Source of the DNA: a bacterium BMS3Abin11
GTDB taxonomy: Bacteria > Pseudomonadota > Gammaproteobacteria > BMS3Bbin11
DNA length: 37,005 nt
Assembly: GCA_002897635.1 (NCBI GenBank)
Contig: BDTD01000014.1
Location: 1-37,005, forward strand
Reading direction: 5' to 3'
Below are positions 639 to 36,876 of the stretch, piece by piece. The notes under the pieces are model-generated. The model was not told the DNA's origin, did no database searches, and saw only the letters and a program-made list of their open reading frames with translations. Position numbers and translations under genes: made by a program. Within the stretch, counting starts at the first letter, position 1, and each line of letters begins with the position of its first letter.

Positions 639-1211
639 TTATTTATTTGAATCACCGAGAGTGTGATAGGAAAGGTCTTCTACAAGTGCTGCTACATTCT
701 TTTGTAGTATTTCATGACAGTAATCGGTTCGAATAGTTCTAACTTCATCAGCTTCACAAGCGATGACCCTCTCAAACAGGCGTGTATGATGTCTAAGAAT
801 TATATTTCTAGTAAATCGCGGGCCAGAAAGCATATCATTTCGTCTTGCAAGTCTACCATATTGTTTTCTGTGGTTTACTTTGCACTCTATGATAAACAGA
901 CGAGCTCGGCTCCTGCGAGCCAATTCTTTTGCCTTACCTCTAAGCAATGTGGTGAGGAATGTTGCGTCTAAAACAATTACAGAGTTATTAAGTTTCAGCA
1001 AGTTATCCTCAGCCTGTTGTATTAATTCTTGATAGGTTTGCCTTGTAATTCTTCTTGAGTATCTATTTTTTGGGTTAATTGAGTTTCTTGTAATAACTCT
1101 CCTTATTTCATCAGCAACAAGTACTCTAGTACCAACGGCGTTAGCAATCAGTTTTGCTACCGTTGACTTACCACTTCCTGTAGTGCCACACATAATAAAG
1201 ATTTCTTTCAT
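639..1211 (-). CDS. P-loop kinase-like ATP-binding protein (AAA_33/zeta-toxin-like)
   Basis: The protein is about 190 aa with an N-terminal Walker A, GTTGSGKST, at residues 9-17 after a hydrophobic strand (MKEIFIMC). Around residue 75 the strand VIVLDATFL has the Walker B/LID arrangement of the polynucleotide-kinase/zeta-toxin-like AAA_33 group. An arginine-rich lid (RRSRARLF, RLARRNDM) and a second strand LFIIECKV follow. The start is taken at the methionine just before the P-loop strand (1211); an upstream ATG at 1241 would add ten residues without family support. Members of this fold phosphorylate nucleotides, sugars or antibiotics, so the substrate cannot be named. It is transcribed in the same direction as the downstream phosphorylase-TPR gene, 125 bp away. 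AT-rich composition suggests transfer. Confidence 0.65.
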   Translation of the reverse strand: MKEIFIMCGTTGSGKSTVAKLIANAVGTRVLVADEIRRVITRNSINPKNRYSRRITRQTYQELIQQAEDNLLKLNNSVIVLDATFLTTLLRGKAKELARRSRARLFIIECKVNHRKQYGRLARRNDMLSGPRFTRNIILRHHTRLFERVIACEADEVRTIRTDYCHEILQKNVAALVEDLSYHTLGDSNK

Positions 1212-1335
1212 AATTCTGCACATGCTAAATCTGTTGACCACTGACTCGGAGATGGCTCAATAGACAATAATGCGTATTTATTTGTGAAATTGATGTAATC
1301 CTTTTTGCTTTATTTGAATAGACATAATCTCCAAC

Positions 1336-3156
1336 TTAAACATCATGAGTTTCTAAATGGCCTCGTGTCTCGGGCTTAATTGCCCTTCCAATAGTTTGTT
1401 GGACTGCAATGAATTTAGAGATGCCTGATATATAGTGTATAGCTGTTGGTGAAGTCCTATCGTATACCAAGTAAATTCGCGCATAAACCATGTCAATATT
1501 ATCCAACGCAATAACAAGATTACGTTGCTTTTTATATTCGTTGCAGAGTTGATCGAACTCATCTGACAAATTGGCGAGTGCTAATAGCATCAGCATATAA
1601 ATATATATAAGGCCGCGACGCGGATTGGCGTTGATGCTGTTTAAAGTTGTGAGCTTTGCTCGTTCAAATGAATAAGTGCTATCTTCAGCGGAGTTTATCC
1701 CTTCATTTTCCAATAGTTTACACGCAAAAAAGTGATTTATATCGATGAAAAACTTAGGATCTGCGCTATTCATAGAGACTGCACTTTGCATGGCTTTTTC
1801 TGCTTTTATTAAAGCTGTTTTTTTATTTCTCCTATCAGGTGAATAACTTACTTCGAAAATCAGTGCGAGCGCTGAAAGGTAGAGAAGTTGACTTGTGGAT
1901 AACTCGGTATCATCTAGAAGGCGCTTCATTTCTAAATAATCACCCTGGCGCCATAAAATTTCAGCGATTAGCTCAATTGTAGTCGGGTCGTTGTACCAAA
2001 TACGCTTGCGCTGATCTTCTAAGGTTTGAATGGCTTCATCGTAATTTCCTATTCTCATCAGGGATTTTAGATATAGTTTTCTCGCAGAGTTTGTACGTAA
2101 GCCACCGTTATACGCTTTTTTTATCTTTTCTCTCGCATGCGCGAAGTCTCCTTCCTCGTAATAGGAAGAAGCATTCTGAAGATACTTTAAAAGTTTCTTA
2201 TCGCGACGAGACCGGCAAAATCCACGTACGATAGCGCTTGGTAGGACGGATCCGAGAAAATCGAACGCGTTTGCGAGTGCCAATTTATGTATGCGATCAT
2301 GTTTGTCTAAATCTGCAAAATCTACTACACCCTTGACAACTAGCCAGCCGACATTTCCTGCCTGTTTTGCTGCGTAAACCATAGAATGTGCTTCCATTTC
2401 TATAGCCAACAACTCCCGTTCATCTTCATCGCCAACATTTGGTTCAACATTATTCTTAAAATATTCGAAAATACCCGGCACCTTAATAATCTGGTTTCCT
2501 GTTGAAAAAATACCGAGGTGAGCTTTTCCAGGATTATCTTTTATGTTTGTATTTTTAGTGTTTAACAATTGTTTATTGTAACCATCGATTTCAGAAATAA
2601 AATCAGCTAGTCGAAAAAAAGATTCATCCATGCCACTTATCGTATTTGTATGTAATCTGTGGTCGAAATGTAGCCGCATTTTTATTTTACTGAGCAGTGG
2701 TATGTATTTCTTTACCCAATCGGAGCTAAAAAGTGGCTTCAACTCCAATTTACCGTAGTCATGTCGGACGGTTGAACATGCAATAATTACATCACCTAAT
2801 TCTATAACCTTATCCTTATCCTTATTCCTGCCCGGGTCGCCTGCACAAATACCTACCATACATATAGCTAATGGATTAATTTTATAAATTGTTTTAGTTG
2901 CGAGGTAGGTAGTTGCATCACTACCCATAGAAGGATGAGGGAGTTTATAAATATGGTATCGAAGGATCTTTCCATCAGAGTGTTCTACTTCAAAAACCAT
3001 ATCAGCATCTGTTTGGCCATCAGGGAGCTGGTAAAAGTTTATGTCTGACGACTTCTTCAACTTCTGAGACCATTCTTTTAAAGCGATATATTCATTTTTT
3101 ACCGCAACAAGAAGTACAATATCCAGCTCATAGTGAATTGTGCCTTTCTTCGTCAT
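1336..3156 (-). CDS. Nucleoside phosphorylase-superfamily domain fused to TPR-like helical repeats
   Basis: The protein has 606 residues. Residues 10-310 match the PNP_UDP_1 / MTA-SAH nucleosidase fold: strand DIVLLVAVKNEY, the glycine-rich turn AICMVGICAG (98-106), ELGDVIIA (119-126), the EMEA signature at 253-256 that binds the nucleoside ribose, and GVVDFAD (276-282), which corresponds to the conserved Ser/Asp-Asp segment near the base. Residues about 320-590 are helical repeats of TPR type (for example YYEEGDFAHAREKIKKAY and IGNYDEAIQTLEDQRKRI). No transmembrane segment or signal peptide is seen. Phosphorylase domains joined to repeat scaffolds occur as effectors or sensors in microbial conflict and signalling systems; that role here is inference. 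It lies between a P-loop kinase-like gene and a methyltransferase in an AT-rich accessory block. Confidence 0.75.
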   Translation of the reverse strand: MTKKGTIHYELDIVLLVAVKNEYIALKEWSQKLKKSSDINFYQLPDGQTDADMVFEVEHSDGKILRYHIYKLPHPSMGSDATTYLATKTIYKINPLAICMVGICAGDPGRNKDKDKVIELGDVIIACSTVRHDYGKLELKPLFSSDWVKKYIPLLSKIKMRLHFDHRLHTNTISGMDESFFRLADFISEIDGYNKQLLNTKNTNIKDNPGKAHLGIFSTGNQIIKVPGIFEYFKNNVEPNVGDEDERELLAIEMEAHSMVYAAKQAGNVGWLVVKGVVDFADLDKHDRIHKLALANAFDFLGSVLPSAIVRGFCRSRRDKKLLKYLQNASSYYEEGDFAHAREKIKKAYNGGLRTNSARKLYLKSLMRIGNYDEAIQTLEDQRKRIWYNDPTTIELIAEILWRQGDYLEMKRLLDDTELSTSQLLYLSALALIFEVSYSPDRRNKKTALIKAEKAMQSAVSMNSADPKFFIDINHFFACKLLENEGINSAEDSTYSFERAKLTTLNSINANPRRGLIYIYMLMLLALANLSDEFDQLCNEYKKQRNLVIALDNIDMVYARIYLVYDRTSPTAIHYISGISKFIAVQQTIGRAIKPETRGHLETHDV

Positions 3157-3289
3157 TTATATGGAATCCTATTTTGTTATATTTTATTTTGCTCGATTGT
3201 ACTATTATTATCACGTTAATTTATTAAATATGAGATAAGCATTTTCTCACTCTAATTTTATGAATTACCCAATATCATCCAAAAAGCAT

Positions 3290-3874
3290 TTATTGGTGTA
3301 GAATTTTATATGCGGAAATTGAATTAATGGTATGGAATGGTTTTGTTATTAAGTCCGTTTCAGTTCTCCATGAATCGACTATTGTTTTTACTGCGGGGTA
3401 TCTCGAATCGAAATAGTCGTGGAAGGCTATGACTCCATGATTCTCAAGTAGATTTGAATATAAAACATCGGCGCGGAGTGACTTCTCATCGTGTCCTCCA
3501 TCAATGAACATAAAGCAGAAGCTCCTACCAAACGTATGCGCAATCTCTTCAAATGCATGTTCTGACCGACTGGAGTATAAAGTTACTTTTTCAGAAAACC
3601 CAAGATGCTCGATGTTGAGTTTCCATTCTCTTTCTACTTCACGAAAATCCACTGGGGTTTGATCACCTCGAAGGCTAGCTTGACCGGCGAATGAGTCACA
3701 GGTGACTACATGAGTCGCTGTAGAGGAAAGATATGCTGTGGATCTCCCACGAAAACAGCCAATTTCTAAGACAAATCTATTCTTTGCCATTTTTGAGAGC
3801 CACAGCCCTTCATCCTGAGATATGTGGCCAGGAATAGAATGTGGAATATTATTATGGGGTGGTTTGTACGTCAT
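3290..3874 (-). CDS. Class I SAM-dependent methyltransferase (Methyltransf_24-like)
   Basis: This 194-aa protein has a clear SAM-binding motif I, VLEIGCFRGRST (about residues 35-46). CDSF follows as motif II and FMFIDGGHDEKSLRADV as motif IV; IDGGHD is characteristic of Methyltransf_24 and cephalosporin-hydroxylase-like families, where the acidic residue and histidine can bind a metal. GVIAFHDYFDSRYPAVKTIVD is the next conserved block. The likely reaction is methyl transfer to a small molecule or sugar; the substrate is not predictable. It is separated by 133 bp of AT-rich sequence from the phosphorylase-TPR gene and lies in the same direction, so co-transcription is possible but not evident. 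Confidence 0.7.
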   Translation of the reverse strand: MTYKPPHNNIPHSIPGHISQDEGLWLSKMAKNRFVLEIGCFRGRSTAYLSSTATHVVTCDSFAGQASLRGDQTPVDFREVEREWKLNIEHLGFSEKVTLYSSRSEHAFEEIAHTFGRSFCFMFIDGGHDEKSLRADVLYSNLLENHGVIAFHDYFDSRYPAVKTIVDSWRTETDLITKPFHTINSISAYKILHQ

Positions 3875-10410: not shown

Positions 10411-11469
10411 CTAGGTACGACCGTACCAAGTTCCTTTGCCTTTTCCATGCTGGTTTAAATGCTTGTCCAAAACAAGCGATTGCAGATGTTTTTTTACCGT
10501 ATTGCGATTAGCGCCTGTGATTTTAATAATTTGACTAATTGTTAATCGACCATGTTCTTTCGCAAGTTCAAGGATTTTTAAGGACAATTCTGGCAGTGTC
10601 GCAACAAGGATTTTCTCTCGCTCAATTTTGACCTGCAAGCGCTGTTTTTGTTTTTTCAGTGCGTGTAGAAAATATATTACCCAGGGTTGCCAATCAGGAG
10701 TATCCGTTCGGATCGTGCCTTGTGTATTTCTAAGCGCCTGATAATAACTTTCTTTAGTTTGCTCTATTTCGCTTTCTAGTGAGCTATAGGGTACGTATGA
10801 ATATCCACTGCGTAAAAGTAATAATGTTGTTAGAACGCGAGATAAACGACCATTGCCATCCTGAAAAGGGTGAATTTCTAAAAATACAACCGTAAAAATT
10901 GAAATTATCAGAAGAGGATGTAACTGATGTTCATCCATAGTTATATTTACCCAATCTACAAGCTCCGTCATTAGTCCTGGTGTATCGAATGGCGAAGCAG
11001 TTTCAAAGACAATGCCGATTTCATTGCCTTCGGCATCAAAAGCGCTTACATTGTTGGGATTAGTTTTATAACTTCCTCGATGCCGCTCATCCTTACTACT
11101 ATAGACAAGGAGGTCACGGTGCAATTGTTTAATATGATTCTCAGTAAAAGCAATTTCCTCTGAGTGAGAAAAAATTGTTTCCATTACTCCTGCATATCCA
11201 GCTACTTCCTGTTCATCACGAGTATCAAATTTCTTGATTTCAATATTGTTAAGGAGTTGACTGATCTCACTATCTGAAAGCTTGCTGCCCTCGATTCGAG
11301 TCGATGAGCCAATGCTTTCAATTGTGGCTACACGACGTAAGGCAGATAGACGTTCTGGAACCAAAGTCCCAAGTGAACGCCATGCACCCTTGAATTCATC
11401 CAACTCAGAAATAAGAGAAAGGACTTCAGGTGTGATTTTTAAACTGTTTGTGTTAAAGCTCATACCCAT
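10411..11469 (-). CDS. Class II Fic-family protein with C-terminal winged helix
   Basis: From the chosen ATG (11469) the protein has about 352 residues. The N-terminal region holds the inhibitory motif STRIEG (about residues 56-61), whose Glu blocks ATP gamma-phosphate in class II Fic enzymes. The catalytic loop HPFQDGNGRLSR is at 200-211 with all key residues present. Residues about 290-352 form a winged helix (LTISQIIKITGANRNTVKKHL). This is the common Fic-wHTH architecture: an autoinhibited AMP-transferase or de-AMPylase joined to a DNA-binding domain. ATGs at 11463 and 11526 are alternatives, and no strong ribosome site is seen. It is the only cargo of module 3 and needs no antitoxin partner. 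Confidence 0.85.
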   Translation of the reverse strand: MGMSFNTNSLKITPEVLSLISELDEFKGAWRSLGTLVPERLSALRRVATIESIGSSTRIEGSKLSDSEISQLLNNIEIKKFDTRDEQEVAGYAGVMETIFSHSEEIAFTENHIKQLHRDLLVYSSKDERHRGSYKTNPNNVSAFDAEGNEIGIVFETASPFDTPGLMTELVDWVNITMDEHQLHPLLIISIFTVVFLEIHPFQDGNGRLSRVLTTLLLLRSGYSYVPYSSLESEIEQTKESYYQALRNTQGTIRTDTPDWQPWVIYFLHALKKQKQRLQVKIEREKILVATLPELSLKILELAKEHGRLTISQIIKITGANRNTVKKHLQSLVLDKHLNQHGKGKGTWYGRT

Positions 11470-11492
11470 ATTAATACCCATAAATACCCATA
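11463..11492. repeat. TACCCATA direct repeats at the Fic gene start
   Basis: TACCCATA occurs at 11463, 11475 and 11485, with degenerate copies (CACCCACA, TACCCAAA) near 11520-11540. The repeats overlap the possible start codons. They may be operator sites for the protein's winged helix, or slippage repeats; neither can be decided here. Confidence 0.4.
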
Positions 11493-34432: not shown

Positions 34433-34790
34433 GGTTTTTTTGTGCTGGCGCACGGCTTGGGTTTCTTTTTTATTCGTTTTCTTGAATTTAACCGTGTTTT
34501 TCGCCCTTTATGGACGAGTTACTTTTACTTTGCTTGCTCAAAGAAAAGTAACCAAAAGAAAGAGCACCCGCATGCTTGCCCTTCGGGTTCCCTGCGAGGC
34601 TCGGATAAGCTGGCGGGGTGTGAACTCGGGCTACGCCCTCAGACAGGCACACCCCGAAACCCCAGCTCATCCTGCGCTTCTCGGCAAGCCTGAACGGGAT
34701 TATAAGTTCAACATCAAATTCAACATTGTAGAAGCGGCGTCCCGGCGCTACAGGGCTAGATCCTTCAACTAAAAAGGAGAATGGAAGGTC
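34433..34790 (+). repeat. Structured dispersed intergenic repeat downstream of lipA
   Basis: GTTACTTTT (34518) and AAAAGTAAC (34544) flank a nested CTTTG-GCTCAAAG hairpin, followed by AAAAGAAAG. This block is a familiar intergenic repeat head in many gammaproteobacteria. It continues in GC-rich stems (GGGGTGTG near 34616 with CACACCCC near 34648) to about 34700. Apparent frames in the region (for example SKKSNQKKEHPHA) are the translation artefact of this repeat. No protein is called. Confidence 0.65.
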
Positions 34791-35056: not shown

Positions 35057-35818
35057 ATGAAATCCGCAGTTATTAAAGATATGGCTCAAAAACCTTACGA
35101 CAGCCCACCGATCACCGAAGCAGTTATCGAAATACGTTTTGATTCGTCTATCAATGAAAAGGCTCTCGCTAAAACTGTAAAAGCGTTTACCAAGTATTAT
35201 CCGGAGCTTAAACCTATCGATCAGTATGAATTTGAGGTAGCAGTAAGAAACGGAGTACCAAAGACTAACACAAAGATAGTACGAGAATTTAAGCTTACGT
35301 CCCCAGATATGACGGAAGTTATTGTTATAAAAAAATCGGCTTTTGTACTGTCACAACTGGCTCCATATAAAAGTTGGGAGGATTTTATCGTTCGATTTGA
35401 GCGCGACTGGAATCTTCATAAAAAAATAGTAGGTCGGAAAAATATCGTGCGAATAGGTGTTCGGTTTATTAATAGAATTGATATTCCAAGGAAAGGAAAT
35501 AGCTTAGTTAATGAATACGAGTATCTGAATATTTATCCAAAACAACCAGAAGAAATAGGGCCGTTTATAAGTTATGCAGTGCAGACTCAAATGTTTTTGC
35601 CAGAACTTGATTCATTTTTGAAACTCAATTCTGCTGTCGTACCATCACCATTAATAGACAATACATCAATAGTTTTTGATCAAGACATCAGTAGAGAATC
35701 AGAACTGCCACAAAATACAGAAGATATACTAGCGCATTTAAACGAAGTGCGGGGCGAAAAAAATAGAGTTTTTGAACTATGCATGACGGATAAAGCAAGA
35801 GAGTTGTTCAGAAAATGA
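35057..35818 (+). CDS. TIGR04255 family protein
   Basis: This 253-aa protein reads KPYDSPPITEAVIEIRFD near its start, the hallmark of the sporadically distributed TIGR04255 family. IVRIGVRFINRIDIP, YEYLNIYPKQPEE and HLNEVRGEKNRVFELCMTDKAREL follow. It has no signal peptide or TM segment. Family function is unknown; its patchy distribution suggests a mobile or conflict role (inference). The start may be 35057 or the second Met at 35081. It overlaps the next gene by ATGA, so three genes seem to form one operon. The low GC content contrasts with lipA upstream. Confidence 0.8.
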   Translation: MKSAVIKDMAQKPYDSPPITEAVIEIRFDSSINEKALAKTVKAFTKYYPELKPIDQYEFEVAVRNGVPKTNTKIVREFKLTSPDMTEVIVIKKSAFVLSQLAPYKSWEDFIVRFERDWNLHKKIVGRKNIVRIGVRFINRIDIPRKGNSLVNEYEYLNIYPKQPEEIGPFISYAVQTQMFLPELDSFLKLNSAVVPSPLIDNTSIVFDQDISRESELPQNTEDILAHLNEVRGEKNRVFELCMTDKARELFRK

Positions 35819-36423
35819 GTGCCAAAAATATATCAATAGAGTTTAAAAAAGGTTACATAGACTCTGCTGTTAGCGAGGAGACTTTGGAAGTTCGCCGCCA
35901 CATTGACAATTTAGTTGTTAGCTCTAGTTCGAGTCTTTCAAATGTTTCTGCGGAATCTAACAACACTAAATTACTATTGAAACCAACCATAGAAGAAGTG
36001 CTTTTCGATGCTCGTGCGGACATTAAGGTGCTGACATCTACCTTGTCGATGCATCTAGACGATGCATTTAGAAAGAGCTTATTCGAACAGGTCGACCTGA
36101 TTCATGATCCCGATGATTGGGACGAAACCGATTCCCCAATTAATAGTGATGCTTTCAAGAGTTTTATTAGGTGGTACATATTAAGCTCACCGGGCGTTAA
36201 ACCTGGATATGGATTAAGCTCTACTGGAAACATTATCGCCATGTGGTTTGATAACAAAGATAAATTACTTATCGAATTTTTCCCATACGATAAAGCCCGC
36301 TGGCTAGTTTCAAAAGTTGTGGATGATGAATTTGAACGAGCTTCGGGGACTACGAAAATATCGCGTTTGTTCGATGTTCTAGCACCGTACTCACCAAATG
36401 ATTTTTTCTGGCAAAAGGAGTAG
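35815..36423 (+). CDS. Hypothetical protein, second gene of TIGR04255 cassette
   Basis: The protein has 202 residues and is not assigned to a family. The N-terminal third is Ser/Thr-rich and probably flexible (VVSSSSSLSNVSAES). The middle is acidic (HDPDDWDETDSPINSDAFKSF) and the last third is a compact beta segment, PGYGLSSTGNIIAMWFDNKD, then LLIEFFPYDKARWLVSKV, likely a small folded domain. It begins within the TIGR04255 stop (ATGA) and ends three bases before the TTG start of the next gene. Cytosolic. The partner arrangement suggests a complex; no activity is inferred. Confidence 0.75.
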   Translation: MSAKNISIEFKKGYIDSAVSEETLEVRRHIDNLVVSSSSSLSNVSAESNNTKLLLKPTIEEVLFDARADIKVLTSTLSMHLDDAFRKSLFEQVDLIHDPDDWDETDSPINSDAFKSFIRWYILSSPGVKPGYGLSSTGNIIAMWFDNKDKLLIEFFPYDKARWLVSKVVDDEFERASGTTKISRLFDVLAPYSPNDFFWQKE

Positions 36424-36426
36424 GTT

Positions 36427-36876
36427 TTGGGGATTCCTGACGATAATCATGTAATGCGACATATCCCGCAAAAAAAATTACTCAGAGATGGAGACGGGAA
36501 TATTTTGGGAATATCGCCCTACGCTTTTGAGGTAAGAGAGGAAGATCGAAATCGGTTATCAACAAACTGGTTGGAATATTTTGAAGGGTCTAACCATATT
36601 GAAAACGTAGAGTCGACGGTTCAAGCTATGAGAGATATTCCACGTAGACCGATTAAGAAGACCGCCAATTGCGGATTTGGGGTAGGAAACGTCTTAAAAA
36701 TTAAAGACATTTGTTCTGCTCATGGGATAAAAAAACCTGACGTAGTTCGCAGTCCATCAAAAGACAATAAATCACATTCTCGAATTCTTAGAGTTCCCCA
36801 AGATCATATGGATTTATACACTGCCTTAGCCGATGAAGCATTTTTAGAACTCCATATGAACGAAGATATTCCCTAA
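36427..36876 (+). CDS. Hypothetical protein, third gene of TIGR04255 cassette
   Basis: The 149-aa protein starts at a TTG (36427) backed by AAGGAG at 36415-36420, six bases before it; the next in-frame ATG (36454) would lose conserved-looking sequence. It reads HVMRHIPQKKLLRDGDGNILGISPYAFEV, GSNHIENVESTVQAM and NCGFGVGNVLKIKDICSAHGIKKPDVV. The protein is charged and soluble. Its family is not recognised. Three bases separate it from the preceding gene, so they are co-translated. HVMRHI...LGISPYAFEVREED may be a family signature worth searching. Confidence 0.72.
   Translation: MGIPDDNHVMRHIPQKKLLRDGDGNILGISPYAFEVREEDRNRLSTNWLEYFEGSNHIENVESTVQAMRDIPRRPIKKTANCGFGVGNVLKIKDICSAHGIKKPDVVRSPSKDNKSHSRILRVPQDHMDLYTALADEAFLELHMNEDIP

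What the first reader, a model, noticed from the sequence alone, without database searches (positions are those of the whole stretch)
35057..36876. TIGR04255 three-gene cassette with two unrecognised partners
Three genes are joined by ATGA and 3-bp junctions, the last with a TTG start and strong AAGGAG. GC is low compared with lipA, and the cassette sits directly after a structured dispersed repeat at the operon end, a common insertion spot. TIGR04255 proteins are sporadically distributed with unknown function. The fixed two partners make this a good candidate for an undescribed conflict module.
Basis: inference. Interest (0 to 1): 0.6.

Follow-up and report, generated by a model that had tools for sequence, protein, structure and literature searches.

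The report
Mobile three-gene TIGR04255 cassette, effector-like third gene
Three overlapping genes of unknown function next to a lipoic-acid gene form a cassette that recurs, in the same order, across many bacterial phyla and looks like a horizontally spread conflict (toxin or anti-phage type) module whose last protein is predicted to fold like an ADP-ribosylating enzyme.

Summary
g1 (35057-35818, TIGR04255), g2 (35815-36423) and g3 (36427-36876, TTG start) are intact, overlapped or 3 bp apart, GC-poor, and lie after a dispersed structured repeat. g2 and g3 match no Pfam, NCBIfam or PADLOC family, yet they are real and fixed partners: 18 other fetched loci carry g1-g2-g3 homologues in the same order. 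The g2 family follows TIGR04255 in 60 of the 80 fetched loci with a classifiable neighbour, and 13 of 15 g2-family genes in 369 gammaproteobacterial genomes sit directly beside TIGR04255. g3 belongs to a superfamily of four profile-related families with conserved Arg, Ser and His. Congeners lack the cassette; here it sits in an insertion between lipA and a murU-like gene, bounded by inverted repeat copies. TIGR04255 trees cut across phyla. Other TIGR04255 clades carry different pairs, including a HEPN protein. The g3 model (pLDDT 96.5) resembles ADP-ribosyltransferase folds (Z up to 7.3); the g1 model (94.2) is a duplicated TBP-like/guanidino-kinase-like sheet. Best reading: a mobile, modular conflict operon in which g1 and g2 hold or trigger an ART-like effector. 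Module and mobility are shown; ART fold is moderate; toxicity and defence are inferred. No paper naming TIGR04255 was found.

The parts
35057..35818 (+). g1, TIGR04255 family protein, 253 aa; model is a duplicated beta-alpha-beta4-alpha sheet (TBP-like / guanidino-kinase-like)
35815..36423 (+). g2, 202 aa partner 2 (family F01: variable N-terminus, C-terminal domain with W102, P130, G138 and W144 over 90% conserved); starts in ATGA overlap with g1
36427..36876 (+). g3, 149 aa partner 3 (family F07), TTG start; predicted ADP-ribosyltransferase-like fold with conserved R11, S45 and H117
36415..36420 (+). AAGGAG ribosome-binding site of g3, inside the last two codons of g2
   Evidence: direct reading
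34466..34748 (+). dispersed structured repeat at the lipA side of the insertion; an inverted copy (81% identical) lies beside the murU-like gene on contig C19
33443..34432 (+). lipA, conserved anchor gene; in three congeners a murU-like gene follows it after a short gap, without a cassette

Best explanation
The cassette is a mobile three-gene conflict module of the toxin-antitoxin or abortive-infection type. g3 is the effector: a small enzyme with an ADP-ribosyltransferase-like fold that would consume NAD+ or modify a nucleic acid, protein or small molecule. g1 (TIGR04255) is the conserved core, a two-lobed TBP-like or guanidino-kinase-like sheet with conserved charged residues, and would act as sensor or holder. 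g2 is the adaptor joining them, its C-terminal domain being the conserved part. The tight, overlapping gene order would give balanced synthesis of a complex that keeps g3 silent until infection or stress. Shown: conserved order, co-occurrence, mobility, partner exchange. Moderately supported: ART-like fold of g3 and fold of g1. Inferred: that g3 is the toxic part, that g1 and g2 restrain or activate it, and that the benefit is phage defence or element maintenance.
For: Nineteen loci including the window carry g1-g2-g3 homologues in order. In Gammaproteobacteria, 13 of 15 g2-family genes lie directly beside a called TIGR04255 gene, one more beside a TIGR04255-like gene below cut-off, and one has g3 but another upstream gene. 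g1/g2 overlap in 62 of 68 cases. Partner type follows the TIGR04255 tree (12 changes, shuffled mean 41.8), while phyla are mixed (74-76% g1 identity and 70% g3 identity between Bacteroidota and Planctomycetota loci). Three congeners have lipA directly followed by the murU-like gene; here an insertion with inverted repeats lies between. g3 model pLDDT 96.5; re-alignment to PDB chains ranks Tpt1/KptA Z 7.3, CC0527 6.2, AvrPphF 5.1, DarT 5.1, and the first 27 rows are almost all ART-superfamily entries, with the first unrelated fold at Z 4.2. R, S and H are the most conserved columns of the whole partner-3 superfamily (51, 52 and 55 of 57). In other TIGR04255 operons the third gene is a HEPN-domain protein, a common toxin class.
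Against: Foldseek alone finds no significant PDB match for g3, Z 7.3 is within the range of common arrangements (note), and profile comparison of g3 families with DUF952, KptA and RES gives under 2% probability. The third conserved residue is His, not the Glu of R-S-E ARTs. Neighbours of the cassette are mostly housekeeping genes with scattered defence and integrase genes, not a recurrent defence island. No PADLOC match. No functional data exist.
Confidence: 0.42

Rival explanations
1. It is an addiction (toxin-antitoxin) cassette that maintains mobile DNA, without a role in phage defence: g3 toxin, g1 and/or g2 antitoxin.
For: Small overlapping genes; TIGR04255 on plasmids of Crinalium and Thermus and a g3 homologue on a Rhizobium plasmid next to a VapC-type pair; chromosomal insertion flanked by repeats.
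Against: Three genes rather than two, no recognisable antitoxin DNA-binding domain in this clade, and many loci fetched have housekeeping neighbours.
Confidence: 0.25
2. It is an accessory regulatory or metabolic operon: g1 binds a small ligand or nucleic acid and g2 and g3 are non-toxic subunits; sporadic spread reflects niche benefit.
For: g1 model resembles ligand- and nucleic-acid-binding sheets and guanidino kinases; neighbours are mostly housekeeping genes.
Against: No recurrent metabolic neighbour; cross-phylum transfer as a unit; partner exchange including HEPN.
Confidence: 0.2
3. Effector and core are the other way round: TIGR04255 is the enzyme (conserved E21, R132, R136, N139, D208, D210) and g3 is a non-catalytic ART-like or unrelated adaptor.
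For: g1 is the gene kept in all these operons, with several near-invariant charged or polar residues; structural likeness to guanidino kinases Z 8.4.
Against: g3 itself conserves R, S and H across four profile-related families; the exchanged position in other operons holds a nuclease-type HEPN, as expected of effectors.
Confidence: 0.12

Closest known systems
TIGR04255 (sporadTIGR04255, NCBIfam subfamily, no assigned function)
   Same: g1 is a clear member, 121.9 bits against a cut-off of 30
   Different: The NCBIfam entry covers only the first gene; no partner, operon or function was found described, and no paper in the library names TIGR04255
ART-fold modules: RES-Xre and DarTG toxin-antitoxin systems, Tpt1/KptA, DUF952 (CC0527)
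   Same: g3 model aligns to Tpt1 (Z 7.3, rmsd 3.0, 93 residues), CC0527 (6.2) and DarT (5.1); conserved Arg in strand 1 and Ser in a later strand, as in R-S-E ARTs
   Different: No sequence-profile relation to DUF952, KptA or RES; His replaces the Glu of R-S-E; two extra genes instead of one antitoxin
HEPN toxins linked to TBP-like domains (HEPN survey, PMC3710099)
   Same: That paper describes a TBP-like domain fused to HEPN; here a TBP-like-fold protein family shares an operon with a HEPN protein in Thermus
   Different: The window's third gene is not HEPN; separate genes, not a fusion; homology between the two TBP-like folds was not tested

Membership tests
TIGR04255 | Score above the curated cut-off over the full profile | tested here: met
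   121.9 bits, profile positions 2-251 of 252
ADP-ribosyltransferase superfamily (g3) | ART fold | tested here: inconclusive
   VIA-align Z up to 7.3, first 27 rows almost all ART, but Foldseek not significant
ADP-ribosyltransferase superfamily (g3) | Sequence-profile homology to a known ART family | tested here: not met
   hhalign under 2% against DUF952 (two sequences), KptA (one sequence) and RES; the test is weak for the first two
ADP-ribosyltransferase superfamily (g3) | Active-site signature H-H-h, H-Y-[EDQ] or R-S-E | tested here: inconclusive
   R 51/57, S 52/57 and H 55/57 conserved, i.e. R-S-H; the three clades are listed in PMC9503650. Spatial proximity could not be measured
TBP-like fold (g1) | Duplicated beta-alpha-beta4-alpha saddle | tested here: inconclusive
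   Secondary structure fits; Foldseek probability 1.00, E about 2e-4 to TBP but TM 0.3-0.4; guanidino kinases score higher in VIA-align, Z 8.4
Known anti-phage system in PADLOC-DB 2023 | Match of any gene to a system model | tested here: not met
   Only PglZ at E 0.01 for g2, 12.5 bits
Toxin-antitoxin system | One gene toxic, neutralised by its partner | not testable with these tools
   needs expression assays

The most novel reading that the evidence does not exclude
TIGR04255 operons are an undescribed, phylum-crossing immune or addiction system with a fixed sensor core and exchangeable effectors, and the commonest effector class is a new ART-like family with an R-S-H active site.
Probability: 0.35. 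Interest if true: 0.8.

Novelty: new variant of a known kind. Interest (0 to 1): 0.58.

Why it matters
NCBI names TIGR04255 'sporadic' and gives no function. Showing that it is the first gene of a conserved, mobile operon, with two previously unlinked protein families, gives it a testable role. If the third protein is an ADP-ribosyltransferase, it adds an effector family to bacterial conflict systems; the exchange with a HEPN protein in other clades would make TIGR04255 a general control core.

Tried and rejected
Single-sequence search with g2 in 84,980 genomes, phages and plasmids found nothing, and with g3 only a Rhizobium plasmid: the family is too divergent for one-sequence search. Degenerate-pattern scan of viral contigs with g3 failed. 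A first TIGR04255 alignment was too diverse for pattern search. PDB sequence profiles gave no relative of g1, g2 or g3. Idea that g1 is a triphosphate tunnel enzyme: only AtTTM3 at low rank in Foldseek, dropped. Idea that the repeat is a known RNA: no Rfam match. Idea that the cassette sits in a recurrent defence island: 116 proteins, nearly all neighbours of the fetched F07-type loci, gave mixed housekeeping, integrase, methyltransferase and reverse-transcriptase hits, none recurrent. Identity of the two genes on the other side of the insertion (L167) remained unknown. The upstream gene that replaces TIGR04255 at L181 is not detectably related to it.

Full report
What is in the window. The three genes are exactly as read: g1 35057-35818, g2 35815-36423 and g3 36427-36876 with a TTG start. 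g1/g2 overlap by ATGA; AAGGAG stands six bases before the g3 start, inside the end of g2. g1 belongs to TIGR04255 with 121.9 bits. g2 and g3 match nothing curated in Pfam, NCBIfam or PADLOC, and no PHROG. GC of the genes is 0.36, 0.40 and 0.40, against 0.51 for lipA. The window is a whole contig of 37005 bp, so what follows g3 is unknown.

The partners are real families and fixed. Relatives of g2 and g3 are invisible to single-sequence search but appear once TIGR04255 loci are collected. Iterated profiles recruit g2 homologues in 19 other loci and g3 homologues in 20. Nineteen loci including the window carry all three in order. They come from Alpha-, Beta- and Gammaproteobacteria and IMG/VR contigs. 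More widely, one g2 family (F01) stands next to TIGR04255 in 60 of the 80 fetched loci with a classifiable downstream neighbour; the third gene is then F04 (26), F07 as here (18), F12 (7) or F03 (4). These four third-gene families are related by profile comparison: F04-F07 91%, F03-F04 89%, F03-F12 81%, F03-F07 80% in the better direction; F12 links to the rest mainly through F03. Selection bias: the fetched loci were chosen by likeness to g1.

Independent test of co-occurrence. A profile of the g2 family was run on the same 369 gammaproteobacterial genomes as TIGR04255. It gave 15 genes in 14 genomes, and 13 lie directly downstream of a called TIGR04255 gene. Of the other two, one has a TIGR04255-like gene below cut-off, and one (L181) has a g3 homologue but a different 219-aa upstream protein with no detectable relation to TIGR04255. 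In a sample of 398 proteobacterial genomes all four g3 hits lie in the full trio. g1 and g2 overlap in 62 of 68 cases.

Partner exchange. Other TIGR04255 clades carry other pairs: F10+F11 in cyanobacteria and others; F28 (weak helix-turn-helix similarity, below cut-off) plus F32, F32 being profile-related to F11 (86%); a weak HEAT-like protein plus another in Crinalium; and in Thermus a HEPN-domain protein above the Pfam cut-off (27.4 bits, cut-off 22), with a related protein in a gammaproteobacterium. So TIGR04255 is a core gene with clade-specific partners.

Mobility. TIGR04255 is in 34 of 369 genomes and in none of six congeners or the one other genome of the family. In three congeners with enough sequence lipA is followed within a few hundred bases by a murU-like gene; in two other relatives different small genes follow. 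In the own genome the murU-like gene lies at C19:2867-3523, and the 2.9 kb before it hold two unidentified genes and an inverted copy of the same repeat that stands after lipA, 81% identical. The inserted stretch thus seems bounded by inverted copies of a repeat with 31 matches in the genome. That C14 and C19 join is inferred from synteny. A tree of 73 TIGR04255 proteins keeps partner types together (12 changes, shuffled mean 41.8) but mixes phyla (21 changes, least possible 12). Loci assigned to Bacteroidota and Planctomycetota share 74-76% identity in g1, 70% in the third gene and 58% in the second for one pair. These are mostly metagenome bins, so single misassignments are possible.

Structures. 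g3 is predicted with pLDDT 96.5 from 19 sequences. Foldseek finds nothing significant in the PDB and one unnamed viral protein in BFVD (E 1.6e-4). VIA-align on Foldseek's candidates gives Tpt1/KptA Z 7.3 (rmsd 3.0, 93 residues), CC0527 6.2, AvrPphF ORF2 5.1, DarT 5.1, and further ADP-ribosyltransferases; the first unrelated entries come at 4.2. Such Z-values can be chance, but the uniformity of the list is not typical of chance (my judgement; no control was run). Among 57 third-gene proteins the most conserved columns are R11 (51), S45 (52) and H117 (55). ART clades are named H-H-h, H-Y-[EDQ] and R-S-E after their active sites (PMC9503650); R and S fit, His in the third place does not. Sequence profiles do not link g3 to DUF952, KptA or RES. 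g1 is predicted with pLDDT 94.2 from 73 sequences: two beta-alpha-beta-type lobes resembling TBP (Foldseek probability 1.00, TM 0.3-0.4) and guanidino kinases (Z 8.4). Near-invariant residues include E21, R132, R136, N139, D208 and D210. g2 was not modelled.

Interpretation. A tightly coupled, mobile, sporadic operon with a conserved core, exchangeable partners, an ART-like protein in one clade and HEPN in another is the pattern of conflict modules. The TBP-like/HEPN link has a precedent: a TBP-like domain fused to HEPN is described in PMC3710099. Against a simple defence-island story, neighbours are mostly housekeeping. Function is not tested. Literature searches found no paper naming TIGR04255 and none that evidently describes such a trio; most subscription papers and all preprints are missing from that library.

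Noticed in passing
window 34466-34748 and L167 2522-2822: A dispersed repeat of about 200-300 bp with 31 matches in the genome, strong predicted RNA structure (z -4.5) and no Rfam family; inverted copies flank the lipA-murU insertion.
   Followed up: partly
window 10414-11481: GC-poor gene (0.39) encoding a Fic-domain protein (E 6e-37 to a solved Fido protein); possibly another acquired gene.
   Followed up: no
window 642-3874: A second GC-poor stretch (0.38-0.41) with a 606-aa minus-strand gene that has no solved relative.
   Followed up: no
L167 3-1178 and 1396-2361: Two unidentified genes on the other side of the same insertion: the C-terminal part of a large protein with a weak TPR match, and a 321-aa protein.
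   Followed up: partly
L181 444-1145: A 219-aa protein unrelated to TIGR04255 stands upstream of a g2-g3 pair, so the pair may also work with another core gene.
   Followed up: partly
L073 6037-6579, L025 2912-3478 and relatives: Unnamed proteins with a conserved 'S-[QH]-[ST]-C-D' motif (F11, F32) are the third gene in other TIGR04255 operons.
   Followed up: no
L110 3753-4223, L122 4793-5320: RadC-like proteins (recognised by eye) follow the cassette in loci assigned to different phyla, hinting at transfer of a larger block.
   Followed up: no
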